DNA of 64,000 nucleotides, from NCBI GenBank assembly GCA_028689735.1, contig JAQVCP010000005.1:1-64000 (forward strand), given 5' to 3'. This document shows positions 1,352 through 60,132 of the stretch, piece after piece. This stretch comes from Hespellia sp. Its GTDB lineage: Bacteria > Bacillota > Clostridia > Lachnospirales > Lachnospiraceae. The translations under genes were made by a program, and so were the position numbers. Under the pieces are notes generated by a model that worked only from the letters and a program-made list of their open reading frames with translations, made no database searches and was not told the DNA's origin. Numbering within the stretch: the first letter of the stretch is position 1; each line of letters starts with the position of its first letter.

Positions 1352-1352
1352 A

Positions 1353-1843: not shown

Positions 1844-1873
1844 AATATAACCTCTACAAATTTGAATTTACAG

Positions 1874-2368: not shown

Positions 2369-2383
2369 CTTATCCTCCATTCA

Positions 2384-3922: not shown

Positions 3923-3954
3923 ATTGGTTCCTCCTTTCGCCTGTGTGCAAAAGT

Positions 3955-4095
3955 AAAAAACGAGCCTTTTTTGCATACACAAAAAGACCCGCCAAATAAA
4001 CCTTTATATATTCTCACAAATGAAAACAAAGGAAAATCTCTTGCGATAATCTAATTCAAGCGTACACAAAAACAAGCCTGTGTACCACAGGGCTT
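3955..4095 (-). promoter_or_regulatory. Attenuator-like leader upstream of the ABC-F gene
   Basis: Hairpin AAGCCCTGTG-gta-CACAGGCTT + GTTTTTG (4095-4067) and hairpin GGGTCTTTTTGTG..CAAAAAAGGCTCG + TTTTTT (3993-3955) upstream of the RBS. Confidence 0.6.
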
Positions 4096-7189: not shown

Positions 7190-8679
7190 ACGCTCTTTTT
7201 CCTTTCTTTGTCGTTGAATTCAAATCTGTCATCAAAAACCACCATGTCATCAATGGTGCCTGCAAATAGAGGTTCGTAATCCTTACTTTGCAAAATCTCC
7301 TGTGCTGCCAGTCTCACTTCATCATCCAAGACCCTTTTGGCAGAACAGCCCTTGCAGTTCCAAACCTTTACCTTTTCTTTCTGCCCGGCAGGTCCCATTT
7401 TCCAAGTATCGCTCTCCAACTTACTGCCACAACAACCGCAGGTCAGTTTTCCTGAAAAACCGCTGTAGCCTTTCTTGTAGGCTCGCATAACCTTTTTCAC
7501 ACTTCCGTTGTTTAATAGAAACTCAATCCTGTCCAAATGAATGGTTATCTGCTCCACCTTTCTGCTGACTTCATCATCGTTAAAGGTTTCTACTTCCAAA
7601 GCGGTCACGGCAGCATCCATAAGTTCTGTCTCATAGATTGGTCGAAGTTCACACACGCCTTTGCCCTTACGCTCTCTGGTGTTGCAGTTCCACTTCTTTC
7701 CGTACTTGGTGGTTCTTCTGCTTACGGAACACCCACAACAACCGCATTTGACCATTCTTGAAAAGGCTGTTTTCTTGTAGTCCTTATTGGGCATTGACTC
7801 TGCCCTCTCTTCTTTTATCTGTTGTGCCTTTATAAATTCCTCCACGGTCACCAAAGGTTCGAACATCTCTTCAACCGCATATTGTGGCAACTCACCCTTG
7901 TTGTACTTTCTTACATGGTTTTCATTGATGTAGTTTTTCTGTAAAATCATTGTTCCCGTGTAAGAAAAACTCGTTAGGATATTCTTAATTGTGGAATCAT
8001 CCATCGGAACTCCGCTTTGCCCCACCACTCCATCAGCCGCTAATCCTTTGGCTATGGAATATGCAGGCTCACCTGCCAAGTAACGTCTGTAGATGTCCTT
8101 TACCACTTTTCCTTGTTCAGAAATGATGCGGAACATCTCTCCATCCCACTTGTAGCCGTATGGAGCCTTATGACCGTTTGGAATTCCTTGTTGGAAACGC
8201 TTGCGAATTGCCCATTTGATATTCTCTGAAATACTGCGTGACTCTTCCTGTGCAAAGGAAGCAAGAAGTGTAAGAAGAAGCTCACCCTCATCTGACATGG
8301 AGTGGATTCGCTCTCTCTCAAAATAAACATCGATGCCTAATTCCTTAAGACGTCTTGTTACCTGCAAGGTATCAACGGTGTCTCTTGCAAATCGGCTGAT
8401 GGACTTTACAAGCACCAGATCTATAAGTCCGGCTTCGCAATCTTCCACCAGTCGGTTGAAGTCATCACGCTTTTTTCTGCTTGTACCTGTGATGGCTTCA
8501 TCTGCATAAACACCTGCATATTCCCATTCTGGATTGCTTTGAATATAGGAACTAAAGTAACTGACCTGTGCCGATAAAGAATGTAATAATTCATCGTCCG
8601 AAACACGGGCATAAGCAGCAACTCTTAATCTTCTTTTTACACTTGGCAATGTCGCATGAATCCTCGTAATTACTGGCAT
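7174..8679 (-). CDS. Large serine recombinase (two zinc-ribbon motifs, no obvious coiled coil)
   Basis: RVAAYARVSDDELLHSLSAQ, KSISRFARDTVD, VKCGCCGCSVSRR and LTCGCCGSKLESD; overlaps the next recombinase by 16 bp. Confidence 0.94.
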   Translation of the reverse strand: MPVITRIHATLPSVKRRLRVAAYARVSDDELLHSLSAQVSYFSSYIQSNPEWEYAGVYADEAITGTSRKKRDDFNRLVEDCEAGLIDLVLVKSISRFARDTVDTLQVTRRLKELGIDVYFERERIHSMSDEGELLLTLLASFAQEESRSISENIKWAIRKRFQQGIPNGHKAPYGYKWDGEMFRIISEQGKVVKDIYRRYLAGEPAYSIAKGLAADGVVGQSGVPMDDSTIKNILTSFSYTGTMILQKNYINENHVRKYNKGELPQYAVEEMFEPLVTVEEFIKAQQIKEERAESMPNKDYKKTAFSRMVKCGCCGCSVSRRTTKYGKKWNCNTRERKGKGVCELRPIYETELMDAAVTALEVETFNDDEVSRKVEQITIHLDRIEFLLNNGSVKKVMRAYKKGYSGFSGKLTCGCCGSKLESDTWKMGPAGQKEKVKVWNCKGCSAKRVLDDEVRLAAQEILQSKDYEPLFAGTIDDMVVFDDRFEFNDKERKKSVWQRK

Positions 8680-8702
8680 ATTGACCCTCCTTTCCATGTG
8701 AC

Positions 8703-9507: not shown

Positions 9508-10974
9508 TTATACTCTTTTTACATAATCAAGGGAAATCCATCCTGCACCGGACTTTAATTTACCCCATTTGGTTGCACCCTTACCATCGGACTCTTCCAC
9601 AATGGTATATACTCCCTTTGGAATATACTTCGTTCTTGCATAGTTCGTTCCTGGACCCTTACGGATATTAAGGTCAGAGATGCTGACCTTTACAAGATAA
9701 GGTTCAAATGCTGTGTTTGAATACACCACTTTCCCGGACTCATCAAACACGGAATAACCCTTATTCTTATCAGCACACTTCTTTGCATATTCCAAATTGT
9801 GATATGCCCCCTTCTGTGATGCCGCATCCGCCCATGTCTTACGCACACGATACCATACTTCTTTTTCTTCTACAGGCTTTTCAACCTTAGTACCGATAAT
9901 GGCATTAAGGATAGTAAGAATCTTACCACCATAGCCTTTACCTGTTGCCCAGCCTTTTCCGTTCGGATTTTCCTTTTGACCGAGCCAATCCACATATTCT
10001 GCACTTCCTCTTGTAACATATTTGAATCGTGGGTCTACACATTCATTCACAAGAGCATCTGCACAGGCATAAGCCTTTAAGTGCTGAATCTGTGCCCTGA
10101 TACCAAGCTGTGCTGTATCAAAAGAATTTCCCGTTTTACCTTTAGAAGTTACACCCATACCACAGAAGTTGTTCTGTGTAAGTGTTACGGCAGTCCCTTC
10201 AAATTTGAAATTACCTGTTTCAAGACAAGACTGTGCAAATGCAATATCTCCTCTTACTCCCTCTGCCTTTCCTTCTGATAAATAAAGCGGAATCATATCA
10301 ATTACCGATTGAGCCACAGATGGGTTCTTTGCTTTAATGTAAGATGCCATCTGCTCTGCTGTTGCAACTGCTGTTCCCATAATCTTCGTATAGGAACTTG
10401 TATCCTCTGTAACCATTGCAGCTTTTACATCCTTACGGAATCCATCCATTGTGTAGCCCATGCCAAGCTGAGTCCACAAATGCTCTGGGTCTGCATGGTT
10501 ACTTGCCACACCACAAGCATGACCTTCCTTATGGCTTATAATGACACCATCTGCTGTTGGGTCTAAGCAATACTCTGTACAGAGCATTGCAAACAACTCC
10601 ACAGCCGCCTCATAGGTTCTCTTGGCTACAGCTTTTGCCTCTTCCACGTTAGAACAGGTAAATGAAGAACCGCCTGTGTACTTGATGCAGGCAGGCTCAC
10701 ACATTTCTACACCAATATGGGTATTATTACTTGAGCCGCCACCGTGCCACCCTCTGTGATTCCAAGGAAGTGTCTGATACACCGTTCCATCATTACCATC
10801 AATAAATGCGTGGACACAGGCTCTGTCATAAGAAGATTTGTTCCACGAATTAATAAAGGCTAATGCCTTCGGTTGGGAACACCCAACCGAATGAAGCATC
10901 AGCCCTAAGACAGTAATTTTCTTCCCTGCCTTATAGCAGGGATTGTTTGTCATAATAGATTCAATTAACTTCAT
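9508..10974 (-). CDS. Endolysin: N-acetylmuramoyl-L-alanine amidase plus glucosaminidase-like and SH3 domains
   Basis: Amidase_2-like HSVG..HGGGSSNNTHIGVEMCEP; glucosaminidase-like FAQSCLETGNFKFEG..NNFCGMG; C-terminal SH3 LNIRKGPGTNYARTKYIPKG. Confidence 0.92.
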   Translation of the reverse strand: MKLIESIMTNNPCYKAGKKITVLGLMLHSVGCSQPKALAFINSWNKSSYDRACVHAFIDGNDGTVYQTLPWNHRGWHGGGSSNNTHIGVEMCEPACIKYTGGSSFTCSNVEEAKAVAKRTYEAAVELFAMLCTEYCLDPTADGVIISHKEGHACGVASNHADPEHLWTQLGMGYTMDGFRKDVKAAMVTEDTSSYTKIMGTAVATAEQMASYIKAKNPSVAQSVIDMIPLYLSEGKAEGVRGDIAFAQSCLETGNFKFEGTAVTLTQNNFCGMGVTSKGKTGNSFDTAQLGIRAQIQHLKAYACADALVNECVDPRFKYVTRGSAEYVDWLGQKENPNGKGWATGKGYGGKILTILNAIIGTKVEKPVEEKEVWYRVRKTWADAASQKGAYHNLEYAKKCADKNKGYSVFDESGKVVYSNTAFEPYLVKVSISDLNIRKGPGTNYARTKYIPKGVYTIVEESDGKGATKWGKLKSGAGWISLDYVKRV

Positions 10975-10975
10975 G

Positions 10976-11386
10976 CTACTCCTCGCTTTCTGCATCTTCA
11001 TGCAACTGCTTCAATACAAGTTTCAGTTTTTCAGGAATTGGCAGACCTAAAATCCCGGCATTCTCTAAAAGTGATACACCTTCGTTAGAAAGGTAAAAGA
11101 AAATGACCGCTGTTCTAAGTACGCTGCCTGTCCCAATCACCTGCACATCCAGAATGTTTGACATTCCCACAAGGATGAATATCAACACCTTACGGCAGAT
11201 ACCTCTGAAACCTACTTCGCTAGAGAGTGTTTTGTTGGAAATTGCACACATCACACCAGTCACATAATCAGCGACCACAAACACGACAAGTGCAATCAAC
11301 AGTCCGTCACAACCTCCAAGGAAGTATCCGAGCCATCCACCAATGACCGTAATTACAGCCTGAATTCCATTCCAAAATGCTTTCAT
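10976..11386 (-). CDS. Phage holin (toxin secretion/phage lysis holin family)
   Basis: Short multi-TM protein upstream of the endolysin; ATG 11386 with GGAGG. Confidence 0.9.
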   Translation of the reverse strand: MKAFWNGIQAVITVIGGWLGYFLGGCDGLLIALVVFVVADYVTGVMCAISNKTLSSEVGFRGICRKVLIFILVGMSNILDVQVIGTGSVLRTAVIFFYLSNEGVSLLENAGILGLPIPEKLKLVLKQLHEDAESEE

Positions 11387-31956: not shown

Positions 31957-33693
31957 CTACTCACATTTGGCATAATAATTTATGCCCGACAAAACGAATA
32001 CCACATTCGGCAGGGCTACACCGTTACCCCACATCTTATATTCCGCAGAATCGGAATGTGGATTCTTAAGCCATTTGATAATCTGGCTGTCTGTTTTCGG
32101 TTTTATCTTCTTGCCCATTGCTTTCGCATGAACAGAAAATACATTCTTCCACCAAGCAATCTCCTCTTTAGTCGGATTCTCTGTTTCCAGATCATCGCAC
32201 CACCAATCAGGAAATCCTTGTAATCTCGCACACTCTGTTGGAGTGAGCCTTCTGACAATATACTCAGGCTCAACGATATGATAGTCACCGCTGAAAGCCT
32301 CTTGATTGCCGAGCCATTGTTTCTCTCCCATACTCGCAGCAAGGGTTCCAAATACATCCTTGCCCGATGCCGTTTTGACATCATTTATAATCGGCGGGTC
32401 TTTATAATCTGTAGCCACTAATGTGTTTGCCAGCTCTTCCTCTGCATTCGTAAAGAATGATGCTTTACTTGAACTAAAGGTAGGAACTGCTACTGCACTT
32501 GGTCCCTGTGCATTTAATGTGGAATTAATCCCATCATCCGTAATGCCCGGAACTCTTGCAAAATTCTGACCACAGTTAAAAGCCTCTCTGTCAATGGCAT
32601 AAACAACTGCGTGTTTATCAACTGTATTTAATGTGAATGAGACATCCTCACTGATTCCATCACCCTGTGGACCGTTCTCATCCTTCCTTCCAATCATGGA
32701 GCCCTGTAATGAAACCACAGCCATACCACCTTGATTGCACGATGGATTTCCTCCATTGGCATCCAAGCAACGTGCTGTATCAGCTTCATAAAATCCACTG
32801 TTCGGATTATTCGATTTCATGGAATTACTCTCTTTGGCACAGATGCCATACACCTTTGGTGTCTCAACCACAAATGGCTGATTATTACCACCAGTTCCAT
32901 AAGTAGACGAAACTGTCTGTGCTACTTCCAAGGGACCGGTGTATCTCGTGTCCTGACTGTGATTCTCAAACATCAAGCGGTCTGTGCCTGTTTCTCCAAT
33001 GCCTTCTGAAGTATCTCCGGCAGCTTTTTCCCACGGCTTTCTGCTCTTCGCAGAATACCCAGACACGCTTTCTGACTCAAATAGTATTTTTCCTGCACAC
33101 CCACCTGCAAAATCTGCGACAAGGTAGATACGCTTTCTTCGTTGGGGTACTCCCCAAAACTGTGCATCGAATAATCTCCATGCGACTGAGTAACCATCTC
33201 CCAAGATTTCTCCTGCGTTTTCCCACTTTGAAGGTCTAGGAACAGACACTTGCTCGTCTTTGACTTTGCAGATTTCTTCGAGGACTGCACGGAAGTCATC
33301 TCCTTTGTTACTGGAGAATGCTCCTGGGACATTTTCCCAGACGATAAATCTTGGATATTTTCCATTGGTTGCCTCCCTCATTTCTTTAATGATTCTGATT
33401 GCTTCATAAAAAAGACTTGAGCGTGAACCACCCAAGCCGTCTCTTTTCCCTGCCACGGACATATCCTGACATGGGCTTCCAAAAGTTATAATATCTACGG
33501 GAGCAAGGGTACTACCATTTAAGGTAGTAATGTCTCCCAAATGTTCCACCTGTGGCAGTCTCTTTGTTGTGACACGAACAGGAAAAGGCTCAATCTCCGA
33601 TGCCCACAAAGGGGTAATACCGGAAATCAAGCCTCCTAAAGGAAATCCCGCCGAGCCATCAAAAAGACTGCCAAGCGTTAAAGTTCTACTCAT
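31957..33693 (-). CDS. DNA (cytosine-5) methyltransferase with repetitive target-recognition region
   Basis: LFDGSAGFPLGG, FGSPCQDMSVAG, IVWENVPGAFSS, RRLTPTECARLQGFPDWW. Confidence 0.95.
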   Translation of the reverse strand: MSRTLTLGSLFDGSAGFPLGGLISGITPLWASEIEPFPVRVTTKRLPQVEHLGDITTLNGSTLAPVDIITFGSPCQDMSVAGKRDGLGGSRSSLFYEAIRIIKEMREATNGKYPRFIVWENVPGAFSSNKGDDFRAVLEEICKVKDEQVSVPRPSKWENAGEILGDGYSVAWRLFDAQFWGVPQRRKRIYLVADFAGGCAGKILFESESVSGYSAKSRKPWEKAAGDTSEGIGETGTDRLMFENHSQDTRYTGPLEVAQTVSSTYGTGGNNQPFVVETPKVYGICAKESNSMKSNNPNSGFYEADTARCLDANGGNPSCNQGGMAVVSLQGSMIGRKDENGPQGDGISEDVSFTLNTVDKHAVVYAIDREAFNCGQNFARVPGITDDGINSTLNAQGPSAVAVPTFSSSKASFFTNAEEELANTLVATDYKDPPIINDVKTASGKDVFGTLAASMGEKQWLGNQEAFSGDYHIVEPEYIVRRLTPTECARLQGFPDWWCDDLETENPTKEEIAWWKNVFSVHAKAMGKKIKPKTDSQIIKWLKNPHSDSAEYKMWGNGVALPNVVFVLSGINYYAKCE

Positions 33694-45179: not shown

Positions 45180-45228
45180 ACGTGGTGGCAAGGCAAACCG
45201 CCTTGCTGCCACTATTTTTTTACAAGGA
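45180..45228 (+). terminator. Terminator/attenuator-like hairpin between DUF2815 and DNA polymerase genes
   Basis: GTGGCAAGGC-aaac-CGCCTTGCTGCCAC-TATTTTTTT. Confidence 0.65.
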
Positions 45229-45238
45229 AGGTGACAAA

Positions 45239-47230
45239 ATGCGTAAAATTGGGACTTTATCGATTGATATTGAAACTTATTCAAGTATAGATCTGGCAAA
45301 ATGTGGTGTATATAAATACAGTGAATCCTCGGATTCTGAGGTTTTACTCTTTGCATATTCTGTTGATGGCGGACCCGTTATTGTAATTGATGTAGCAAAC
45401 GGAGAATCCATACCGGATGAAATATTACAAGCACTTGTTGATGATTCCGTTATCAAATGGGCGTTCAATGCTGCATTCGAGAGAGTGTTCCTCTCCATTT
45501 GGCTAAAACGTAACTACCCGGAACTCTTCTGCTCTTACAGTATCCCGGAAGATTCCGTTGGAAACTATCTCGACCCATCTGCTTGGAGATGTTCCATGAT
45601 CTGGTCAGCATATATGGGACTCCCACTTTCGTTGGAAGGTGTCGGTGCTGTTCTTGGCTTAGAAGAACAGAAACTAAAGGAAGGCAAAGACCTCATTCGT
45701 TACTTCTGCAAGCCTTGTGCAGCAACCAAGGTCAATGGCGGCAGAACCCGTAATCTACCGGAACACGCACCCGATAAATGGGAATTATTCAAAGCGTATA
45801 ATAAAAGGGATGTTGAGGTTGAAATGAATATACAGAAGAAACTCTCCCACTATCCTGTTCCTGAGTTTGTATGGGAAGAATACCACCTCGACCAAGAAAT
45901 CAATGACAGAGGCATTGCTCTTGATATGGATGTTGTAGAAAATGCTATTAAGATTGATGCCATCAGCAAAGCAACTTTAATGGCTACAATGCAGGATTTA
46001 ACAGACCTTGAGAATCCAAACTCCGTAGCACAAATGAAAAGTTGGCTTGCTGCAAAAGGCATTGATACCGACTCTCTTGATAAAAAGGCTGTTGTAGAAT
46101 TACTTAAAACCGTACCAACCGATGTGGCTGATGTTCTTACACTTCGTCAGCAGCTCGCCAAATCATCTGTAAAGAAATACCAAGCCATGCAGAATGCTGT
46201 GTGTGATGATGGACGAGCAAGAGGTATGTTCCAGTTCTATGGTGCGAATAGATCAGGACGATGGGCAGGTCGTATCATTCAGTTACAGAACTTACCACAG
46301 AACCACATGGAAGATTTGGATGTTGCCCGTGAGCTGGTAAAAGATGGAGATTACGAAATCCTCAATATGTTCTATGACAATGTTCCGGGAGTTCTTTCCG
46401 AACTCATCCGTACAGCATTTATTCCAAGAGACGGGTATAAATTTGCAGTAGCAGACTTTAGTGCTATTGAAGCAAGAGTCCTCTCCCACCTTGCCAAAGA
46501 AAAATGGCGTTCAAAGGTCTTTGCAGACAATGGGGATATTTATTGTGCATCTGCATCTGCGATGTTCGGAGTTCCGGTAGAAAAACACGGCCAGAACTCT
46601 CATCTGCGTCAGAAAGGTAAAATCGCAGAATTAGCATTAGGTTACGGTGGCTCTGTCGGAGCATTGACCGCTATGGGAGCATTGGATATGGGAATTGCTG
46701 AAGAAGAACTCCAACCTCTTGTTGATGCTTGGAGAGCTGCCAACCCAAACATCGTACAGTTTTGGTGGGATGTTGACAATGCAGTAAAACGTGCTATTAA
46801 GGAGCGTACTGCTACAGAGACCCACGGCATCCGCTTCATCTACAAAAGTGCCATGCTCTTCATCGTTCTTCCATCCGGCAGACGATTGGCTTATGTGAAA
46901 CCTCGCATCGGAGAGAATAAGTTCGGCGGTGAGTCAGTCACTTACGAAGGTGTCGGCACAAATAAAAAATGGGAACGCATCGAATCATACGGTCCCAAAT
47001 TTGTCGAGAATATCGTGCAGGCAATCAGCCGTGACATTCTCTGCTATGCACTTCGCACCTTAAGTCATTGTTTCATTGTAGGTCATGTACACGATGAAGT
47101 TATCATCGAATGCAGACAGGATGCATCCTTGGAGGCTATCTGCGAACAGATGGGACGTGTTCCAGAATGGATTGAAGGCTTACTGCTCCGCGCTGATGGC
47201 TATGAAACACAATTTTATAAAAAGGATTAA
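45239..47230 (+). CDS. Family A phage DNA polymerase
   Basis: LSIDIETYSSIDL exonuclease; FAVADFSAIEARVLSHLAKE; FIVGHVHDEVIIE. Confidence 0.95.
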   Translation: MRKIGTLSIDIETYSSIDLAKCGVYKYSESSDSEVLLFAYSVDGGPVIVIDVANGESIPDEILQALVDDSVIKWAFNAAFERVFLSIWLKRNYPELFCSYSIPEDSVGNYLDPSAWRCSMIWSAYMGLPLSLEGVGAVLGLEEQKLKEGKDLIRYFCKPCAATKVNGGRTRNLPEHAPDKWELFKAYNKRDVEVEMNIQKKLSHYPVPEFVWEEYHLDQEINDRGIALDMDVVENAIKIDAISKATLMATMQDLTDLENPNSVAQMKSWLAAKGIDTDSLDKKAVVELLKTVPTDVADVLTLRQQLAKSSVKKYQAMQNAVCDDGRARGMFQFYGANRSGRWAGRIIQLQNLPQNHMEDLDVARELVKDGDYEILNMFYDNVPGVLSELIRTAFIPRDGYKFAVADFSAIEARVLSHLAKEKWRSKVFADNGDIYCASASAMFGVPVEKHGQNSHLRQKGKIAELALGYGGSVGALTAMGALDMGIAEEELQPLVDAWRAANPNIVQFWWDVDNAVKRAIKERTATETHGIRFIYKSAMLFIVLPSGRRLAYVKPRIGENKFGGESVTYEGVGTNKKWERIESYGPKFVENIVQAISRDILCYALRTLSHCFIVGHVHDEVIIECRQDASLEAICEQMGRVPEWIEGLLLRADGYETQFYKKD

Positions 47231-48914: not shown

Positions 48915-50825
48915 TTATGCACAACCCGGAAGTTTGATTTTAATATTGGCATCTGTCAGCTTATCTTGCCATTGTTGTAAGGTATCATCTGGATGTTCAT
49001 CAATTACCCATCCTATCATAAAATTCTGCATACTTGGTACGCTTAAGTCATATCCTGCCTTTTTCATAAGGTCATGACTATAATGTTTCTCTAATTTTAA
49101 CCCGTTACATAATGCTACTGCTCTCTCTATTGTAATTTTAGGAGTAAGCGTATTTCTATATTCGCTAATAGACACCGTACTAATATTAGTTCTATATGAC
49201 AGTTCCTCATTTGTAATACCTTTACGATTCATGTGATAGTTTAAGGTACCAGAAAAACCACTTGGTATTTCAGTAGCTAATCTTCTCACTATGTCAGTCA
49301 CAGATTCCGATATTCTCTCTATCTCCTCTTTTCGTTGACTCTTGCTTTGGTTATCCTTATGATTAGGGTCATACTTTGCCTCGATAAAGGTTACTGAACT
49401 TACATCTCTACACAAGAAACACCTTCTGTAGAAAGAATCACTATATGTATCACTAGCATTAATCTTACGCTCAAACACATAACAACATTCGTGTACGTGC
49501 TCTAATGCATAATTTGTCAATATCGGAAGCCCTGTTTCGCTCTTCGTCACATACTTTGGAGCATTGATACATACCATACTGTTAGCGAATATCAATCTAC
49601 CCTCAAAATACATCGAGCGAAGTTCTTCCGACATAAAAATCTGAATCATGGCACTCTTTTCATCAATTACAAAAGTCTGATTAGGCTTTAACGTCCCTCT
49701 TGGGAAAGAGAACGGTGGAAGATATTTTCCATCTGAAAACACCTGCACACCATGTGCCTCATCATACCCCAATTCAATTACACGAATTTTAGCTGCAATC
49801 GCAGATACCATAAAGAAAGAAGCCAACTCTCCCACAGCTTGTTCCATCAATTCAGCATTTCGCATCATCGGATACTCAGCATGAAGTCTTCGCAAACATT
49901 CATCTAATTTTCTTTTGGTCATTTCTGCTGGCATAAGAATACGAGGTGCAAGCTGATTTGCCTGCCACTCCATCCACTTCAATGCAGGTGCATCCTCTGG
50001 AATTCCATCGTACACTTCCACTATTTCACATGAAATATGATTACATTCTCCTTGCAGAAGTTTTTGCAATTCAAACGGTTTACGATGTCTATCCCAATGT
50101 ACACACTCATGAATAATCGTGTTATTTGCTGTGCCAATATTATACATAAAATAGACATTTGGATTTATCAGCATTGTTCCAGGTTCTGTCACTATTTCGC
50201 AAGTTTCCTTGCGTAAAATATTAGTATATACAATGACCTTCTCGAATCCAAAATAAGTCTTACCAAATACACCTTCTTCCAATGGAGCAAAATATAGTTT
50301 CATCCCCATAGAAGATACAATCTCTTCTACAGGTAATGCCATTGGCTGCATAAGTGCCTTCGGATAATGTCTACGTAAGAAATCCTCTGCATGACGTTCT
50401 ACATCTTCTTCATACATATAAGGTACAAGATTTTGGCTAAGACTTCTATCTCGTTCATAACGACTTACATCATACTCTGAAACATTTGTAATTCTCACAT
50501 TATGAAGTCCGTTTTCTAATAATGCTCGGAAGAATATATTATAGCACTTGCAATCCTCAAATGTTTCATGTCCATATCTAGTTTTGCCTGCTACTTCTAT
50601 ATCAGCATCGACTGTGGCACGAATCTCCAGTTCATCATTTCCCATATCTTTAAAGGTAACTCCAGATACATGAATATCTTGTAAACTTACCCAAGTAACA
50701 TATGAAATTGCATCATTTTCAAAGCTATCCTTCGATTGCGTTGCAATATAGGAAGATAGCTTTGCCATCATATCATCTATAAAATTATCCTCTAGAAATG
50801 CTTTGAACGATTCGTATTTTGCCAA
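48915..50825 (-). CDS. ImmA/IrrE-like zinc metallopeptidase fused to C-terminal XRE-type HTH
   Basis: NTIIHECVHWDRHRKPFE (HExxH); C-terminal MNRKGITNEELSYRTNISTVSISEYRNTLTPKITIERAVALCNGL. Confidence 0.85.
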   Translation of the reverse strand: MAKYESFKAFLEDNFIDDMMAKLSSYIATQSKDSFENDAISYVTWVSLQDIHVSGVTFKDMGNDELEIRATVDADIEVAGKTRYGHETFEDCKCYNIFFRALLENGLHNVRITNVSEYDVSRYERDRSLSQNLVPYMYEEDVERHAEDFLRRHYPKALMQPMALPVEEIVSSMGMKLYFAPLEEGVFGKTYFGFEKVIVYTNILRKETCEIVTEPGTMLINPNVYFMYNIGTANNTIIHECVHWDRHRKPFELQKLLQGECNHISCEIVEVYDGIPEDAPALKWMEWQANQLAPRILMPAEMTKRKLDECLRRLHAEYPMMRNAELMEQAVGELASFFMVSAIAAKIRVIELGYDEAHGVQVFSDGKYLPPFSFPRGTLKPNQTFVIDEKSAMIQIFMSEELRSMYFEGRLIFANSMVCINAPKYVTKSETGLPILTNYALEHVHECCYVFERKINASDTYSDSFYRRCFLCRDVSSVTFIEAKYDPNHKDNQSKSQRKEEIERISESVTDIVRRLATEIPSGFSGTLNYHMNRKGITNEELSYRTNISTVSISEYRNTLTPKITIERAVALCNGLKLEKHYSHDLMKKAGYDLSVPSMQNFMIGWVIDEHPDDTLQQWQDKLTDANIKIKLPGCA

Positions 50826-50843
50826 TATGTAGTCCTCCTTACA

Positions 50844-52082
50844 CTATGTCAACACCTTCTTAAATTCAGCCAGAAAATTCTTCCATTTCAACATAAGCAT
50901 CAAATCGATGGTACGAATACTAAGCGGTCTCTTCCTTCCACTCAAATCTATAAAGCTATAATCATCTACAATGCTTTCCTTTGAAACAAGTGGATATAAT
51001 AATATTATCCTCTCCACATTCTTAATACTGGATGAATAAGCATTCATCTGATATGTATCAGCTTCCTTTGCGAAATTTTTAGGAATCTTCCACTTTGTAT
51101 CGATAATGTCCATCATACCTGAAGCTTTTTTTATTGTTATATCCGGTCTTAAGCCAACATACCTTTTTGCGTCAGAATCTCTCTCCAATAAATAATTACC
51201 CTTCATCTGATAAATAGCATTATTTCCAAAAACCATCTTCGATACACGGTATATAAACAATTCATACAAATCATTCATATTAAACAGCATCATACTTATT
51301 GAGGTGTTTCCGGCACTTAGTGTACTAAAAATATTATTCAAAAATAAGACACCGTACCTGTACGCTTCTTCTGCTCTATGATTTGTAGAATTGAAAACTA
51401 TAGGCTTTGAGAGCGCTTTTTCCTTTGTAACAGTGGCAATATCATCAAAGACAGGTAACAAATATTTGATACGTCTCTTATTTTGATTGTCATTACTTAC
51501 CTTATACATCTGAATAAGGCACAACTTCATAAATCTATTAATCTCGTTATCTGCCGTAAACTTTGAAAAACGGCACCAGAATTTTGTCGGATCCAGCACA
51601 TTTCTCGAAAACTGTTTTCCAAATAAAATCCTACCTTTTACTCGATTAATATTATGGTCTATCTTCTTATAAGAATGCTGCAATCCCTCTTTTATATACT
51701 TTTCTAACGAATTCAAAAAAGTATCAATCAACATCTCTATCAAAGAATTTTTTTGCATCTGTGCCATGCCGGGCATTTCACGAACAGATGGATTTTGATG
51801 TGAAACCGTTATCATTCTCATCAATACCATCCTTAAATCCTCGGTCGATACATATCCATACAACTTTGGCAATATCTCAATATTAAGGTCCTTTAAAGAA
51901 ATAGTTCCAACCCAATGTTGTGCAACCAATTTCTTATATCCCCACTTAAAAACCGGCTCATCATCCATAATTACCGTTTGAAGAGCCAATGCATCTTCTT
52001 TGGAGATTACATTACGTGAAACATCTCTTTTATCTCTTATATGAAGTTGGTCGAATTCTTTTACAATAATTGTATCTATCAT
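50844..52082 (-). CDS. McrC-like restriction component (PD-(D/E)xK nuclease)
   Basis: NRVKGRILFGKQFSRN; YVGLRPDITIKKASGMMDIIDTKWK. Confidence 0.92.
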   Translation of the reverse strand: MIDTIIVKEFDQLHIRDKRDVSRNVISKEDALALQTVIMDDEPVFKWGYKKLVAQHWVGTISLKDLNIEILPKLYGYVSTEDLRMVLMRMITVSHQNPSVREMPGMAQMQKNSLIEMLIDTFLNSLEKYIKEGLQHSYKKIDHNINRVKGRILFGKQFSRNVLDPTKFWCRFSKFTADNEINRFMKLCLIQMYKVSNDNQNKRRIKYLLPVFDDIATVTKEKALSKPIVFNSTNHRAEEAYRYGVLFLNNIFSTLSAGNTSISMMLFNMNDLYELFIYRVSKMVFGNNAIYQMKGNYLLERDSDAKRYVGLRPDITIKKASGMMDIIDTKWKIPKNFAKEADTYQMNAYSSSIKNVERIILLYPLVSKESIVDDYSFIDLSGRKRPLSIRTIDLMLMLKWKNFLAEFKKVLT

Positions 52083-53341
52083 ACGTATATCTGCTCTAAT
52101 GAATCTTTTGTAATATTCTCTGATACAGAAAAATGTTTCTTATCATCAATCATGTAATCCCCTGTATAAGAGAAATAGTCATCTGCCACTAAATCTGTAT
52201 GTTTGTATATAGCTGTTATACGCAAATCGCCATTATCATCCAAATCATTGAAAACCATCTGAATCTTTTGTACATCATCATAGAAATATTCTTCTAAAAG
52301 AGGTACTACTGAATTTCTAATTACATTTGCTATATCATCCAATGTTTTACAACCAATAAACAAAGCGTGTCCAAGCAAATGCTGTGAATCCAGTAAAATC
52401 TCGATTCTAGCATTCAAAGCATTAAACAATTTTATTAAATCAATACCACCAATATTATGCGCATCAATTCCCTGCAAATCCAATTCTTCCTCTATAACTT
52501 TTGCACTTGGCAACATTGGTCTGAATTTAAAACGTCTTCTCAATGCAATATCTATCTGGTCGATGGAACGGTCAGCAGTATTCATTGTTCCGTATACATT
52601 GATATTTGAAGGTACCGAGAAAGGTGTCTTTGAATAAGGCAGAACCACAGACAATGCACCCGTTTCTCCTTCTCTTTTATCAATTTCAATTAAACTTATT
52701 AACTCTCCAAAAATCTCTGATATATTTCCACGGTTTATTTCATCAATAAAAATTGCATAAGGCTTTTCCTTATGTCCAGCAGCCCTATCACACAGAGATT
52801 TGAAAACACCATCCTTTGGCGAATAATCAATACTCTTTGTTGCTGAAATATATTCTGGCCTGATTCCTTCTATAAAGTTTTCATAAGAGTATGATTGATG
52901 AAAAGTAACGAAATCATATCTTTTTGTTACCCCTGCTGTACTCAAAAACTTCTTGAAGAAATCTGCTCTTGCTTGTTGCACTCTGATTAAATCCACATAC
53001 CATTCACCTGGGTTTGTTGTAAAAAATATTCTTGGTTGTTCTCTTGTAACCCCTGGAATAGGTGGCTGTTCAATATTATGCTTATCTAACACAGCAGCGA
53101 CATTAATAGTTACTCCCAATCCTAAACTATCAACCTTGGTCTGAATATCCTTAGTCGGCATCTTACCTTGATTCTGCAAAAGCACCATAGTTATCAAAAT
53201 CCAGTCCTTTGATTCCAATGTGTAGGCACTACGAAGTTGTGCATCATTGATATCATAATCAATGTAATCGTTCATAAGTGACTGTAACAGATAAGTCTTT
53301 CCTGTTCCTGGAGGTCCATAAAAAATAATATTCTCTGCCAT
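52079..53341 (-). CDS. McrB-like AAA+ GTPase restriction component
   Basis: IIFYGPPGTGKTYLL; YSYENFIEGIRPE; AIFIDEINRGNISEIFGELISLIE; VYGTMNTADRSIDQID. Confidence 0.95.
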   Translation of the reverse strand: MAENIIFYGPPGTGKTYLLQSLMNDYIDYDINDAQLRSAYTLESKDWILITMVLLQNQGKMPTKDIQTKVDSLGLGVTINVAAVLDKHNIEQPPIPGVTREQPRIFFTTNPGEWYVDLIRVQQARADFFKKFLSTAGVTKRYDFVTFHQSYSYENFIEGIRPEYISATKSIDYSPKDGVFKSLCDRAAGHKEKPYAIFIDEINRGNISEIFGELISLIEIDKREGETGALSVVLPYSKTPFSVPSNINVYGTMNTADRSIDQIDIALRRRFKFRPMLPSAKVIEEELDLQGIDAHNIGGIDLIKLFNALNARIEILLDSQHLLGHALFIGCKTLDDIANVIRNSVVPLLEEYFYDDVQKIQMVFNDLDDNGDLRITAIYKHTDLVADDYFSYTGDYMIDDKKHFSVSENITKDSLEQIYV

Positions 53342-53346
53342 GTGTT

Positions 53347-54099
53347 TTATCCTTTCAAATATTTTAATCCTGCTAAAAATGCACTACCACTTGTAATAGT
53401 TGAATGACCATATTTTGCATCATACACCTGCTTAAGTTTACGAACCTTTGCTGGAGAAATATATCCTAAATGCTCCATATAATACTCAACATCTTTAATT
53501 CTCAACTGTGGCTTTCTAGGGTTTCCACCTTCTAAACGGTCTCGAGCAGTATTGTAATTTACATCCAATCCATAATGTATCATAACGTCAGATAGGAAAC
53601 TTCCTATGCTATTATTAGGACAATCTAAAGATAGATATCGAATCACCTGTTTAGCTGCACTAGCATCCGGTGTGCCCCTTCCATCAATTACACCAATAAT
53701 AAATGCTTTCTGAACATCCCGTGAAGAAGAAAAAAGTGCTGTTTTCAAATCTGGTATTTCTGCAAGCAAATCTACTAAACCTGTCGATTCAAAAAATGTG
53801 CTAAATCCCGGAAGTCTATTTTTGCCAGAATCAAGCGAGGTTCCTTTTATATTATCTTTCATTACTGTATAGCCATTGACTTTTGCAGAAATAGTACTTA
53901 CAAAATCAAAATGCTCTGCTGTCTCTGTGGATGTCGAATATGTAGGGTTGTACCTTACTGGTGCTGCCCAATATGTCTTTCCACTACTTATAACTTTCTC
54001 ATCGGCTGCATATATCCCACCAAGGAAGTAAGCAACCTCTTCTGTTAAATATCTAGTACCCGTGTTAATCTTTGCATCATAAACTACATATGTTGGCAT
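53347..54099 (-). CDS. LAGLIDADG-like protein in the restriction-modification operon
   Basis: Two motif-like helices: LTEEVAYFLGGIYAADE and KAFIIGVIDGRGT, followed by typical C-terminal YYMEHLGYISPAKVRKLKQV. Confidence 0.6.
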   Translation of the reverse strand: MPTYVVYDAKINTGTRYLTEEVAYFLGGIYAADEKVISSGKTYWAAPVRYNPTYSTSTETAEHFDFVSTISAKVNGYTVMKDNIKGTSLDSGKNRLPGFSTFFESTGLVDLLAEIPDLKTALFSSSRDVQKAFIIGVIDGRGTPDASAAKQVIRYLSLDCPNNSIGSFLSDVMIHYGLDVNYNTARDRLEGGNPRKPQLRIKDVEYYMEHLGYISPAKVRKLKQVYDAKYGHSTITSGSAFLAGLKYLKG

Positions 54100-54176
54100 A
54101 TTTTTGTCCTTTCTATACCAGCACAAGGCAAGGATACCCTTGCCCGGCTACTGATAGTTTGTCTTATTTTGTCATT

Positions 54177-55238
54177 TTATTTACTCATATCTTCAAGAAT
54201 TGCATCTGCAACTGCTTTTGCAAGTAAAGGTGGTACTGCATTCCCAACCTGTTTCATTTGTGATGTCTTGGTTCCAAAGAAATGAAATGAATCAGGAAAT
54301 GATTGTATTCTAGCGGCTTCTCTCACAGTGATAGCCCTATTCAAATACGGATGTGTAAATTTACCAGATGAAGGCGTATCAAATCGTGTTGTTATCGTAA
54401 CCGAAATATCCTCAGCATCCATTCTTTCCCATGTTCCGCTGTAAATGGATTTTGTTAAATGCTCTGGTGGAAGATACTCTTTTCCTCCTTTTGGAGGAAT
54501 CATTTCCAATCTTTCAAGTGCCACCTTCGAATGTTTCGTAGCAATGTGATTATAAACTTTGTCACTAGCACCTCTCATCATTCTTTGATAATCCGATTCC
54601 GGCTCTTTAATATAATCCGAAATTTCAGCACCTTCCCCCGAATTCAAATAAGCCAAATCACTAATTGCTTCCCAAATGGTTGTCCTTTTTTCTTTTTTCT
54701 TCGGCATTTCAACTTGAGTAACACCACGTTTGCCAATAATAAATGCTCTATGTCTATTCTGCGGCACTCCGTAATCTGCTGCACACAAAACCTGTGCATT
54801 AATCGTATATCCTAATTCTGTAAACATTTTTTCTAATTCCTGCTTAAAAAATCCTTTTTCAGCAGTTAGAAGATTAGGTACATTTTCCATTACAAAGTAC
54901 TCTGGCTGAACTTCTTTTACCACTTCCACAAAATATCTGAAGAGAAAATTTCTTGGGTCGTTAATTGTTTTCCTTTGACCTTTTTGAGAGTAGCCTTGGC
55001 AAGGTGGACCACCCACTACCAATGTGACTTGCCCCTTGAATTTTCCAAAAGTTTCATGAATTGGAAGTTTGGTAATATCATCAACAACCATATTTGCTCC
55101 TATACGGTTTTTTATATAGGCTTCCGCTATTGATGCATCATACTCATTTGCAATTAATGTTTCAAAACCAGCTTGTTCAAATCCTAATGAAAGTCCACCG
55201 ACACCTGCAAATAAGTCAATCATTTTCAATTTATTCAT
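54177..55238 (-). CDS. DNA (cytosine-5) methyltransferase
   Basis: MIDLFAGVGGLSLGFEQAG; VGGPPCQGYSQKGQR; FVMENVPNLL; REAARIQSFPDSFHFFG; QVGNAVPPLLA. Confidence 0.97.
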   Translation of the reverse strand: MNKLKMIDLFAGVGGLSLGFEQAGFETLIANEYDASIAEAYIKNRIGANMVVDDITKLPIHETFGKFKGQVTLVVGGPPCQGYSQKGQRKTINDPRNFLFRYFVEVVKEVQPEYFVMENVPNLLTAEKGFFKQELEKMFTELGYTINAQVLCAADYGVPQNRHRAFIIGKRGVTQVEMPKKKEKRTTIWEAISDLAYLNSGEGAEISDYIKEPESDYQRMMRGASDKVYNHIATKHSKVALERLEMIPPKGGKEYLPPEHLTKSIYSGTWERMDAEDISVTITTRFDTPSSGKFTHPYLNRAITVREAARIQSFPDSFHFFGTKTSQMKQVGNAVPPLLAKAVADAILEDMSK

Positions 55239-55965
55239 CTTTAATCACACTATCAAGCCTTTCTTTAGAATTTTGATAATATTCTTTGTCAATTTCTGAA
55301 CCGACAAATTTCCGGTTATGCATCAAAGCTGCAACTCCAGAACTTCCACTTCCTGAGAAAGGGTCAAAAATTACATCATTTTCATTTGTTAATATTGTCA
55401 CAAAATGTTCCAATAATTGTATAGGCTTTTGAGTCGGATGCTTTCCAAATGTTTTTTCACTCCCCGGCGTTACCGAAGTTTCAACAAAATCATGTATCGC
55501 TTTTCCACCATTATTAAATGTACCTGTGTGTGATTTATATGTAAAATAAATCCACGCTTCAGTAGAATTAATGAAATGTAAATTCATGTTTCTTGGCATT
55601 GGATTTCTTTTATGCCAAATCCCTGTGGTCTTATAATAAAATCCATGTTTCTCAGCCAGTTTGATTATTGATTCAACCTTAATAATTGACATAAACATTA
55701 TAACAGAACCTCTAGTTTTAATTACTCTTGCGAGTTCTGAAAACATTTCATCCATGTCTCTTTCCCATTCATCAAACTCCAAGTCATCCCATCCGGCAGC
55801 ACCGAAAAAATTATCACGCATTGCCTTAAGATTAGTTGCTCTATTCTTCATAAATAGTCCTAAGTTATATGGTGGATCCGTCAGAACTAAGTCTATCGAA
55901 TCATCAGCCATCTTTTTCATTGCATCCATACAACTTTCATTATACAGACAGTATTTTTCGTCCAT
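55231..55965 (-). CDS. DNA N4/N6 site-specific methyltransferase
   Basis: IDLVLTDPPYNLGLF; KHPTQKPIQLLEHFV; VIFDPFSGSGSSGVAALMHNRKFVGSEID. Confidence 0.96.
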   Translation of the reverse strand: MDEKYCLYNESCMDAMKKMADDSIDLVLTDPPYNLGLFMKNRATNLKAMRDNFFGAAGWDDLEFDEWERDMDEMFSELARVIKTRGSVIMFMSIIKVESIIKLAEKHGFYYKTTGIWHKRNPMPRNMNLHFINSTEAWIYFTYKSHTGTFNNGGKAIHDFVETSVTPGSEKTFGKHPTQKPIQLLEHFVTILTNENDVIFDPFSGSGSSGVAALMHNRKFVGSEIDKEYYQNSKERLDSVIKDE

Positions 55966-55993
55966 TGAGTTCCTCCATCTAAAATGCTCTTAA

Positions 55994-56188
55994 TTAATCT
56001 ATTGCACTTCTACCACTTTTTACCCATGCGTCAAGTTCAGAGCATTTGAATTTCCACTGTTTCCCGATTTTATGAGCAGGTATACCATTTCCCTTTCTTA
56101 TCCAATCACGGACAGTTCCTGGCTTAACACCTAAATAATCGGCAGCTTCATCTATGTTAATCCATTTTTCAACATTTAATGAGTCCAT
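55994..56188 (-). CDS. Excisionase-type helix-turn-helix (HTH_17) protein
   Basis: WINIDEAADYLGVKPGTVRDWIRKGNGIPAHKIGKQWKFKCSELDAWVKSG. Confidence 0.93.
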   Translation of the reverse strand: MDSLNVEKWINIDEAADYLGVKPGTVRDWIRKGNGIPAHKIGKQWKFKCSELDAWVKSGRSAID

Positions 56189-56234
56189 GTTTGTTCCTCC
56201 ACGTTTCTCTATAAACAATAATCCCTCGAATAGC

Positions 56235-56263
56235 ATTATACAACAAATCAAGTATATTATCAA
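56235..56263 (-). promoter_or_regulatory. Consensus-like sigma-A promoter TTGATA-17-TATAAT for the RM operon
   Basis: Minus strand TTGATAATATACTTGATTTGTTGTATAAT. Confidence 0.85.
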
Positions 56264-56266
56264 TCC

Positions 56267-56300
56267 GTTTGTTACGGTTTGTTATGGTTTGTTATGGTTT
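56267..56300. repeat. 10 bp iterons (GTTTGTTAYG x3 + partial) immediately upstream of the RM operon -35 box
   Basis: gtttgttacg gtttgttatg gtttgttatg gttt. Confidence 0.85.
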
Positions 56301-56504
56301 TTCAATGTGCATTTCAACATCCTCTTTAACCTTTATTTTAAGGCCTTCAAATAAAAAAAGTGAGAGTTATAAACTACTAGCTCCCACTTTTCAATGCTAT
56401 TTTTTATGCAAGGATTTTAACTTTTTTTTCTTGGCTACTCATAACTTCTTTATTTCAGCTTACTTATGTGATATACTTCATTTATCTATATTCGGAGGTT
56501 TTCT

Positions 56505-56819: not shown

Positions 56820-57800
56820 TTATTCCCTTGCATATGAAATATCTCGTGCCTCTGAAATCGTATCAGATGTAAGTAAAGTATCAAGCATCGCCCATACCCT
56901 TCCTGTCGGATACAACTTACCTGTTTTAACTATATGTGCAGGTTTAATCGCAGGTCCCAATTTATAAACAAAGTGGTCCATATCACACTCCACATCTGGC
57001 ATTTCCTCAAATTCCTCATGCAAATTACGAGTTACGATATAATCTTCAATATGATGAATAGACTGTAACTGTCCATAATACCTAAAACCTATGTAGTTTG
57101 GTGGTGTTTTAGGCCATCCTTTTCTTCCTCCCCCGATAGGATGAAAATATCTTCCGCGTTTTTCTACAAAATCTATCCATGTCAACTCACAGTTATCTGG
57201 ATGTCCTGTACCAACTGATACCACATATACCCAATTTGAATCTTTTGACTGCATTGTCATTATTCCTCCTAAGTATTCCATCAATTCTTTCAGTAAGTTC
57301 CGTTGTGCTATACTCGAACCTACTCTTGACTCATTTGCTAAATCATATATACGCGCCCATGACAAATGCAGCACAGGTATTCCATTCACTTCATGAAAAG
57401 GAAGATAGGATTTCGCATACTCTTTACTGCACTCTGACATAGATACAATGGCTTTCTGCTTTGCTCCACTTTGCACAATTGCTTTTCTTTCCGAATAAAG
57501 TGTCAGCTGCTCGGCATAGGGCAATATCCACCCTCTCTTTGCTTCAACTATGATGAAAAATGATTCATCATCAGTAATCTCTAAATCAGTTATTCCTTTG
57601 TCTTTTTCAAATTCCTGATAACCAATTCTTACCATTTCCGGATTAATATCAATATTCAAAACTTCTGCTATTATCTTTTTCATAAATACCGGACATTTGC
57701 ACAAAGCCCATGCAATACTCTTTGTAATATCGTTTTCGAGCGTTCCTATCAACTGAAATACGCTTGTAACTTCACTACCATGCGACATTAATTCACTCAT
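56820..57800 (-). CDS. PD-(D/E)xK-like nuclease of unknown family
   Basis: GYQEFEKDKGITDLEITDDESFFIIVEAKRGW: D-x(n)-ExK core. Confidence 0.65.
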   Translation of the reverse strand: MSELMSHGSEVTSVFQLIGTLENDITKSIAWALCKCPVFMKKIIAEVLNIDINPEMVRIGYQEFEKDKGITDLEITDDESFFIIVEAKRGWILPYAEQLTLYSERKAIVQSGAKQKAIVSMSECSKEYAKSYLPFHEVNGIPVLHLSWARIYDLANESRVGSSIAQRNLLKELMEYLGGIMTMQSKDSNWVYVVSVGTGHPDNCELTWIDFVEKRGRYFHPIGGGRKGWPKTPPNYIGFRYYGQLQSIHHIEDYIVTRNLHEEFEEMPDVECDMDHFVYKLGPAIKPAHIVKTGKLYPTGRVWAMLDTLLTSDTISEARDISYARE

Positions 57801-58626: not shown

Positions 58627-59748
58627 TTAAGCCACTTTTACACGAACCCTATCGTTGACTTGTATCGGCACTAACGTCCTTTTGTTCATAGCTGCAAACA
58701 ATAGAAAATCTGCTGGAAACCGGTAGGTTCCTCTCGTCCGGATAATCTGTATCTCTCTCTCCTCCAGCGGCTGGCGCAGAACCTCCAGCACTGTCTTTGG
58801 AAATTCTGCCAGCTCGTCCATCATCAGTACCCCACCGTGAGCAAGACTGATTTCTCCAGGCGATGGCACGATTCCGCCTCCGATCAGCGCCGCTTTGGTA
58901 GCCGTGTGGTGAATCTGCCGGAAGGGACGCTGTCTGATTCCCGCCTGTTCTCCCAATAGTCCTGCCACACTGTAAATCTTGGAAATCTCCAGCAGTTCCT
59001 CTTTGGACATCGGCGGAAGAATGGTGGAAATCCGCTTTGCAATCATCGTCTTACTGGCCCCCGGCGTCCCGATCATCAGAATATTATGCTGACCGGATAC
59101 CGCAATTTCTGCCGCTCTCTTTGCTGCATGCTGCCCCTGAATATCCGCAAAATCAGGTATTTCATTCCCACATAGCTGACTGCTTTCGTTTTCCAAACCA
59201 TCACGAATCCGCTGCTTCTGCTCTGCCAGATAAGATTCCTTGTCACTGAGAAAATCAAGGACATCCATCACCTTTCCCACCCCGATAATTTCCATATTAT
59301 CTACCAATTGACCTTCCATTACATTTTCCATCGGTACAAGACAAGCTGTGCACCCTCTGCGTTTTGCTTCCATCACAATCGGCAGAACTCCTGGAACCTT
59401 CAGCACCTCACCGTTGAGTCCAAGTTCTCCCACTGTCATGATGTTTTCCAGTTTTCCCTCCTCCAGATACGAAAATGTCTCCAGCAAGGCCAGCGCGATT
59501 GGCAGATCAAAAGATGACCCTCTCTTTTTCACGGTGGCCGGTGCCAGATTGATAATGATTTTCTTCGGTGGAACCGAAAAGCCAGAATTAATAAGTGCAG
59601 TCTTCACCCGCTCGCCGGCTTCCTTCACCTCCCCCGAGAGATACCCCACCATATGAAACATCGGCAGACCATTACTGACATCTGCCTCCACATGCACCAA
59701 CTCTACATTCATCCCGTCAAGTGCCGCAGATAATACTGTACTAAACAA
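58627..59748 (-). pseudogene. comM: ComM/YifB N-terminal portion interrupted by the prophage (chimeric 18-aa tail)
   Basis: MFSTVLSAALDGMNVELVHVEADVSNGLPMFHMVGYLSGEVKEAGERV...RFPADFLLFAAMN then phage-derived KRTLVPIQVNDRVRVKVA*. Confidence 0.95.
58660..58687. other. Right attachment junction (phage arm TTGTATC plus att core TTC)
   Basis: comM reading frame diverges after FAAMN; TTGTATC at 58660-58666. Confidence 0.8.
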
Positions 59749-60132
59749 TAAACAACACTCCTTTCCTGATATCTGATTGATATCTTGTCCGCTGACATTT
59801 TTACAGTTCACATCGCCACGCCGTCTGCTGAGTAAATAAGCCACCCGCCAATGTGTTCCTATGTCATTCTCACAAATTGGAATTCTCTGACTGATCCGCC
59901 AGAATCTTTGATACTCTGATACAATTTCAGGAAAAAGAATCTCCTGAGAAATGTGTAATTACTATAGCACACCATCCATCGATATGCAATTCTTTTTCAA
60001 AAGAATTCATCAGAGAGTTTTGCATATTTTCCGATTACTGTGTTCCATGCCATGCGCTTGCCACACTGGAATGGAGAAGATTCGGTTTTGGGAAAAGCAC
60101 AAAATTCACTGTTGCCACATAGACTATATCAA

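What the first reader, a model, noticed from the sequence alone, without database searches (positions are those of the whole stretch)
48915..56306. Prophage-borne hybrid restriction-modification operon: HTH_17 / N4-N6 MTase / C5 MTase / LAGLIDADG-like protein / McrB / McrC (+ ImmA-like HTH peptidase)
Seven co-directional genes with overlaps or short gaps (55231/55238, 53341/53347, 52079/52082, 50825/50844). McrBC homologues usually restrict methylated DNA, but here they sit with two methyltransferases of different chemistry. Known precedents for McrBC-type restriction with cognate methylases are LlaJI-like and possibly BsuMI-like systems. The added LAGLIDADG-like protein, the HTH_17 first gene and the trailing metallopeptidase-HTH gene make the gene set unusual, possibly an undescribed variant. 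One reading is that two different MTases protect the two strands of an asymmetric site while McrBC does the cutting.
Basis: partly seen in the sequence, partly recalled or inferred. Interest (0 to 1): 0.85.

Follow-up and report, generated by a model that had tools for sequence, protein, structure and literature searches.

The report
McrBC restriction with LAGLIDADG-fold recognition subunit
A prophage in a gut Lachnospiraceae-like bacterium carries a conserved five-gene DNA-defence module in which a homing-endonuclease-like protein that has lost its cutting residues appears to act as the separate "site reader" for an McrBC cutting machine, while an adenine and a cytosine methylase mark the cell's own DNA as safe.

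Summary
The operon is real. Its core is five genes: N6-adenine methyltransferase, C5-cytosine methyltransferase, LAGLIDADG-fold protein ("LAG"), McrB and McrC. LAG had no library hit alone. Relatives hit LAGLIDADG_3, an AlphaFold model (pLDDT 91.6) matches I-DmoI, PI-SceI and WhiA, and LAG lacks the catalytic acid of motif 2 (D to R in 14/14). I found 15 independent LAG loci, including a Gastranaerophilales MAG; all carry the methyltransferases (both in 14) and an McrB/McrC-like pair.

In 13 loci LAG lies directly upstream of an McrB lacking the usual N-terminal DNA-recognition domain. Related methyltransferase pairs without LAG accompany a LlaJI-type McrB with a different N-terminal domain (13 loci). 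So LAG most likely replaces that domain as a separate specificity subunit; MTases protect an asymmetric site, McrBC cuts unmodified DNA. In two loci LAG is instead fused to an HNH nuclease beside a long McrB.

HTH_17 is a frequent companion, probably a regulator. The ImmA-like gene is a phage neighbour, absent from the other intact LAG loci.

McrBC-type restriction with an N6+C5 pair is not new (phage phiD12; LlaJI kinship). The LAG subunit seems undescribed. Its recognition role is inferred, untested. New variant of a known kind.

The parts
55994..56188 (-). HTH_17 / excisionase-like small DNA-binding protein (64 aa), probable operon regulator
   Evidence: PF12728 8.6e-18; MADS1-like; homologues head the operon in L028, L029, L030, L013 and in LAG-less relatives L063, L070, L086, L089
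56245..56300 (-). promoter TTGATA-17-TATAAT preceded by three 10-bp direct repeats AACAAACCRT: candidate operator of the HTH_17 protein
   Evidence: sequence; CAAATATAAT-like repeats also upstream of HTH_17 in L028 and L086; function inferred
55231..55965 (-). beta-class N6-adenine DNA methyltransferase (244 aa, DPPYN)
   Evidence: PF01555 2.4e-36; M1.HpyAVI 5hek 2.7e-35; aligned
54177..55238 (-). C5-cytosine DNA methyltransferase (353 aa, PCQ and ENV motifs)
   Evidence: PF00145 8.4e-79; catalytic motifs invariant in 10 sequences
53347..54099 (-). LAG: LAGLIDADG-fold protein (250 aa), catalytic acid of motif 2 replaced by Arg; proposed target-recognition subunit
   Evidence: co-occurrence
52079..53341 (-). 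short McrB-type AAA+ GTPase (420 aa): Walker A at residue 9, no N-terminal domain; about 100-aa insert between Walker A and FHQS motif
   Evidence: AAA_5 4.6e-14, McrB NF008457 7.5e-40
50844..52082 (-). McrC nuclease subunit (412 aa) with PD...DTKWK catalytic motif
   Evidence: PF10117 7.6e-57; PD and D.KWK conserved in 11 sequences
48915..50825 (-). ImmA-like metallopeptidase-HTH phage protein (phrog_4031): neighbouring phage gene, not a core part
   Evidence: phrog_4031 3e-150; absent from the other intact LAG loci; next to some other R-M loci and in Streptococcus phages without R-M

Best explanation
A prophage-borne Type II-like restriction-modification system with an McrBC motor (LlaJI/HpyAVI-like). 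The N6-adenine and C5-cytosine methyltransferases modify the two strands of one short asymmetric site. LAG, a LAGLIDADG-fold protein that has lost homing-endonuclease catalysis, binds the unmodified site. It does the job normally done by the N-terminal domain of McrB or LlaJI.R1, and loads or activates the N-terminal-less McrB GTPase, whose McrC partner cuts the DNA. HTH_17 probably regulates the operon. Shown by sequence: the parts, their motifs, co-conservation of the five genes, the LAG fold and loss of the motif-2 catalytic acid, absence of McrB's N-terminal domain, and that related methyltransferase pairs without LAG have a long R1 instead. Inferred: that LAG reads the site, that it contacts McrB, that unmethylated DNA is the substrate, and that both MTases act on one site.
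For: Co-conservation in 15 of 15 LAG loci, in three architectures and two gene orders. In the 13 loci with a short McrB/R1, LAG lies directly upstream of it (gap at most about 15 bp or overlap where one contig spans the junction; in one locus LAG is split over two contigs). All 13 loci with a related N6+C5 pair, an intact restriction part and no LAG have a long LlaJI-type R1 (584-798 aa) with an N-terminal domain, and that domain is not LAG-like: a non-homologous replacement. LAG fold: AlphaFold pLDDT 91.6, pTM 0.91; I-DmoI 9.6e-5; WhiA 3e-3. Catalytic loss: motif 2 DGR in 14/14, motif-1 acid is N/C/Y in 6/14. LAG is found with McrC-type and with RE_LlaJI-type nucleases, so it follows the methyltransferases rather than one nuclease type. 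R1.LlaJI is the specificity subunit of LlaJI, which acts on unmethylated DNA (PMC1459862).
Against: In L012 and L103 a LAG-HNH fusion coexists with a long R1, so LAG is not simply exchangeable with the N-terminal domain. L032 has no C5 methyltransferase locally or elsewhere in its MAG, so two-strand protection is not universal. No LAG-McrB fusion was found. McrB has a 100-aa insert of unknown function (also in LAG-less McrBs). Nothing shows DNA binding or sequence specificity directly. The LlaI-like cassette has a short McrB-like ATPase without any LAG.
Confidence: 0.6

Rival explanations
1. LAG is a transcriptional regulator (WhiA-like) or controller protein that times expression of mcrBC relative to the methyltransferases, and McrB has its own means of site recognition, for instance the 100-aa insert.
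For: WhiA is a LAGLIDADG-fold transcription factor and a distant relative; in L012 and L103 LAG-HNH is divergent from the MTases, as controllers often are.
Against: An HTH_17 regulator with its own repeats and promoter is already there; LAG has no HTH tail unlike WhiA; it stays directly upstream of mcrB in both gene orders; fusion to HNH in two loci points to DNA cleavage; the insert also occurs in McrBs without LAG.
Confidence: 0.12
2. LAG is itself a nuclease or nickase that cuts or marks the site, with McrBC acting downstream or in parallel.
For: LAGLIDADG fold; LAG fused to HNH in L012 and L103 and a second LAG-HNH protein in L013.
Against: The catalytic acid of motif 2 is Arg in 14/14 and the motif-1 acid is lost in 6/14; the window LAG has no HNH domain.
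Confidence: 0.12
3. A Type IV system: McrBC cuts modified foreign DNA, and the MTases are merely co-carried or create a self-mark that McrBC must tolerate.
For: The McrC is PF10117 McrBC type; classical McrBC is methylation-dependent; MTase-associated McrBC branches are noted in PMC11090510.
Against: The five genes are co-conserved; the short McrB lacks a methyl-reading domain; the closest methyltransferase pairs sit with LlaJI-type enzymes, and LlaJI restricts unmethylated DNA (PMC1459862).
Confidence: 0.06
4. LAG is a selfish homing endonuclease (or a relic) inserted between the methyltransferases and McrB.
For: LAGLIDADG fold; the gene is small and free-standing.
Against: Retained in 15 loci across genera and two phyla with conserved residues, tight linkage to mcrB and a degenerate active site; it interrupts no gene.
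Confidence: 0.03

Closest known systems
LlaJI (Lactococcus plasmid pNP40; GACGC/GCGTC)
   Same: Two MTases for an asymmetric site plus an McrB-like and an McrC-like subunit restricting unmethylated DNA (PMC1459862; record).
   Different: LlaJI has two C5 MTases, specificity in R1 itself, RE_LlaJI nuclease, and no LAG.
phiD12-type systems (N6MT + C5MT + long LlaJI R1 + RE_LlaJI)
   Same: Related methyltransferases (63% and 66% identical to the window's in phiD12) and in some relatives the same HTH_17 gene.
   Different: Long R1 with its own unrelated N-terminal domain; no LAG; RE_LlaJI instead of McrC.
HpyAVI (H. pylori)
   Same: Mixed N6 (GAGG) and C5 (CCTC) MTase pair (PMC5173035, PMC3411764); M1.HpyAVI is the nearest solved relative of the window N6MT and a close relative of the one in L013.
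   Different: A LAG gene is not described; the restriction part is reported as defunct or only putative in those papers.
BsuMI and LlaI three-ORF cassettes
   Same: Short McrB-like subunit (343 and 337 aa) plus extra restriction ORFs (PMC1459862): a free-standing extra subunit has precedent.
   Different: The extra protein upstream of McrB in the LlaI-like plasmid is not LAG-like; BsuMI could not be fetched.
Type IV McrBC (E. coli)
   Same: McrB GTPase and McrC PD-(D/E)xK nuclease.
   Different: McrB has an N-terminal reader of modified DNA; no cognate MTases.
WhiA and LAGLIDADG homing endonucleases
   Same: Fold; WhiA is a precedent for a non-nuclease LAGLIDADG DNA-binding protein.
   Different: LAG sits in an R-M operon, has no HTH tail and lacks the catalytic acid of motif 2.

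Membership tests
LlaJI-type (McrBC-driven Type II) R-M | McrB-like AAA+ and McrC-like PD-(D/E)xK subunits | tested here: met
   PF10117 7.6e-57, McrB NF008457 7.5e-40; motifs conserved
LlaJI-type (McrBC-driven Type II) R-M | two cognate MTases in the operon | tested here: met
   N6 and C5; conserved in 14 of 15 loci
LlaJI-type (McrBC-driven Type II) R-M | both MTases are C5 enzymes, as in LlaJI itself | tested here: not met
   one is beta-class with DPPYN, M1.HpyAVI-like
LlaJI-type (McrBC-driven Type II) R-M | specificity domain at the N-terminus of R1/McrB | tested here: not met
   Walker A at residue 9
LlaJI-type (McrBC-driven Type II) R-M | RE_LlaJI (PF09563) nuclease | tested here: not met
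   window has PF10117; RE_LlaJI only in L012 and L013 by Pfam and in L103 by similarity
LlaJI-type (McrBC-driven Type II) R-M | restricts unmethylated DNA | not testable with these tools
   needs plating or in vitro assay
Type IV McrBC | N-terminal modified-base reader on McrB | tested here: not met
   no N-terminal domain
Type IV McrBC | no cognate MTases | tested here: not met
   N6 and C5 MTases co-conserved
LAGLIDADG fold superfamily (LAG) | LAGLIDADG fold with two repeats | tested here: met
LAGLIDADG homing endonuclease (LAG) | catalytic acid at position 8 of both motifs | tested here: not met
   motif 2 Arg in 14/14; motif 1 N/C/Y in 6/14
MADS defence system | MAD1-like HTH plus the other MAD genes | tested here: not met
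   only the HTH resembles MAD1 clearly, and below the cut-off

The most novel reading that the evidence does not exclude
A restriction-modification class in which a free-standing, catalytically dead LAGLIDADG protein is an exchangeable target-recognition subunit: it can direct an McrBC or LlaJI motor-nuclease, or, fused to HNH, its own nuclease, against the site protected by an N6/C5 methyltransferase pair.
Probability: 0.45. Interest if true: 0.75.

Novelty: new variant of a known kind. Interest (0 to 1): 0.62.

Why it matters
If true, it shows a homing-endonuclease fold recruited as the site reader of an AAA+-driven restriction enzyme, detached from the motor. It would explain how McrB proteins without an N-terminal domain find their targets, offer a modular recognition subunit for engineering, and add a defence family that PADLOC and Pfam do not flag today.

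Tried and rejected
Single-protein scans of viral contigs with the LAG-HNH proteins and with the L013 LAG found nothing. tblastn of LAG in plasmids and phages: no match. Weak profile hits L024-L027: the three checked are WhiA (L027 unchecked). Tested whether long R1s are LAG-McrB fusions: profile comparison 0.8% probability and no PDB fold match, although that model is weaker, pLDDT 77.8. ImmA-like gene considered as a core part and rejected. PD-(D/E)xK-like gene 56820-57800 considered and left out: only a fragment in L030. No paper linking LAGLIDADG with McrB or McrBC systems in this sense was found in the held library. BsuMI YdiR could not be compared because no sequence was at hand.

Full report
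OBSERVATION. The window's - strand carries HTH_17 (56188-55994), N6MT (55965-55231), C5MT (55238-54177), a 250-aa protein here called LAG (54099-53347), McrB (53341-52079), McrC (52082-50844) and an ImmA-like gene (50825-48915). Pfam confirms HTH_17, N6_N4_Mtase, DNA_methylase, AAA_5 and McrBC. The stretch from about 48 to 58 kb is A+T-rich (32-38% GC) against about 43-45% in the phage body and flank. It lies between the phage DNA polymerase gene (45182-47230, by sequence) and a truncated yifB/comM-like gene (58627-59844). Two serine recombinases (5612-8697), terminase, portal, capsid and tail genes show a prophage.

LAG IS A LAGLIDADG-FOLD PROTEIN THAT HAS PROBABLY LOST CATALYSIS. LAG alone hits nothing in Pfam, PADLOC, NCBIfam or PHROGs. 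Of 11 family members, 5 hit LAGLIDADG_3 (best 9e-5) and 3 hit Hom_end. AlphaFold with an 11-sequence alignment gives pLDDT 91.6 and pTM 0.91 with two repeats. The 28 PDB matches with E below 0.001 are all I-DmoI, PI-SceI/VMA1 or a related intein; WhiA follows. Weak genome hits that were checked proved to be WhiA. In homing endonucleases the next-to-last residue of each LAGLIDADG motif is the catalytic acid (established knowledge). In LAG, motif 2 reads [FIM]DGR, i.e. Arg there, in all 14 sequences compared; the motif-1 acid is D or E in 8 and N, C or Y in 6.

CO-CONSERVATION. Class I, 12 loci: LAG, short McrB and McrC with the MTases: window, L016/L023 (split over contigs), L028-L037. Two gene orders occur, N6-C5-LAG-B-C and LAG-B-C-N6-C5, yet LAG stays next to McrB. 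Class II, 1 locus: L013, LAG plus a 354-aa LlaJI-type R1 and RE_LlaJI, with a second LAG-HNH protein. Class III, 2 loci: L012 and L103, LAG fused to HNH, divergent from N6MT-C5MT-long R1-RE_LlaJI. Both MTases are present in 14; L032 keeps only N6MT and its MAG has no related C5MT. Hosts named in the records are mainly Clostridia, plus a Candidatus Gastranaerophilales MAG (L036). L103 came from a scan made after the pattern had been noted, so it is a small independent check.

WHAT LAG REPLACES. In classes I and II McrB begins almost at Walker A (residue 8-12 in class I; 354 aa in all in L013), whereas other McrBs found in viral contigs mostly carry N-terminal regions of about 100-560 residues. 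MTase pairs of the same family (54-66% identity for N6MT where measured) occur without LAG in 13 loci with an intact restriction part, and each has a long LlaJI-type R1 (584-798 aa) with an N-terminal domain opening with an LGIKSS-like motif. This domain is not LAG-like: profile comparison 0.8%, AlphaFold pLDDT 77.8 with no PDB match below 0.001. In LlaJI itself R1 is the specificity subunit, with the unique N-terminal half proposed as the DNA-binding part, and unmethylated DNA is restricted (PMC1459862). The same paper notes that BsuMI and LlaI have short McrB-like subunits in three-ORF cassettes. The simplest reading is that LAG is a free-standing target-recognition subunit that replaces the N-terminal domain. 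Class III warns against overstatement: there LAG-HNH coexists with a long R1, so it may be a second nuclease aimed at the same site.

METHYLTRANSFERASES. The window N6MT is closest among solved structures to M1.HpyAVI (5hek, 2.7e-35); that of L013 is far closer (2e-93). HpyAVI has an N6MT on GAGG and a C5MT on CCTC (PMC5173035, PMC3411764), a precedent for two chemistries on two strands of one site. The window's own site is unknown; GAGG/CCTC should not be assumed for it at 34% identity to the L013 enzyme.

COMPANIONS. HTH_17 is found by similarity in window, L028, L029, L030 and L013, and in LAG-less L063, L070, L086 and L089. In the window it is preceded by three 10-bp direct repeats and a TTGATA-17-TATAAT promoter. 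The ImmA-like phrog_4031 gene is absent from the other intact LAG loci examined. It follows R-M genes in L065 (LlaI-like), L070 and in L080/L081, decayed relatives of the window system in which LAG and McrB are missing and C5MT and McrC are truncated. It also occurs in Streptococcus phages with no annotated McrBC nearby. It is best seen as a phage or cargo neighbour.

MECHANISM AND LIMITS. Proposed: HTH_17 controls the operon, N6MT and C5MT modify the two strands of an asymmetric site, LAG binds unmodified sites and loads McrB, McrB translocates with GTP, McrC cuts. The parts and their linkage are shown; binding, loading and substrate are inferred. The held literature has MTase-associated McrBC branches announced for later description (PMC11090510) but no LAGLIDADG link was found. 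REBASE could not be searched, so an uncurated entry may exist.

VERDICT. A real, conserved, apparently undescribed variant of McrBC-driven Type II restriction. Its interest lies in the LAGLIDADG-fold subunit, not in the mixed MTase pair.

Noticed in passing
window 5612-8697 and 58627-59844: Two adjacent serine recombinases at one end and a truncated yifB/comM-like Mg-chelatase gene at the other suggest a prophage integrated in yifB.
   Followed up: partly
window 284-3982: Low-GC stretch next to the prophage with a tyrosine integrase, GNAT, an aminoglycoside-2''-adenylyltransferase-like gene and a duplicated-ABC (ABC-F-like) ATPase: possible resistance cargo of another element.
   Followed up: no
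window 31957-33693: A second C5 methyltransferase-like gene (578 aa, phrog_38038/phrog_116) inside the phage body.
   Followed up: no
window 56820-57800: 326-aa protein with a D...EAK stretch that looks like a PD-(D/E)xK nuclease by eye; no Pfam hit; a fragment lies at the same place in L030.
   Followed up: partly
window 54100-54177: Hairpin GGCAAGG-GTAT-CCTTGCC between C5MT and LAG without a T run: possible attenuator between methyltransferase and restriction genes.
   Followed up: no
window 52922-53290: About 100-aa insert in McrB between Walker A and the FHQS motif, also in McrBs of L040, L041 and L046; no Pfam hit.
   Followed up: partly
L080 and L081: Decayed relatives of the window system: LAG and McrB missing, C5MT and McrC truncated, ImmA-like gene still following.
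   Followed up: partly
L065:5034-5792: LlaI-like cassette with a free-standing 252-aa protein of unknown family upstream of a short McrB-like ATPase: candidate for a parallel separate specificity subunit.
   Followed up: partly
L013:5287-6624 and 10396-11346: Second LAG-like protein fused to HNH, and a 316-aa protein that looks PD-(D/E)xK-like by eye, in the same R-M locus.
   Followed up: partly
L033:14423-17526: A second, long McrB plus McrC pair directly downstream of the LAG system.
   Followed up: no
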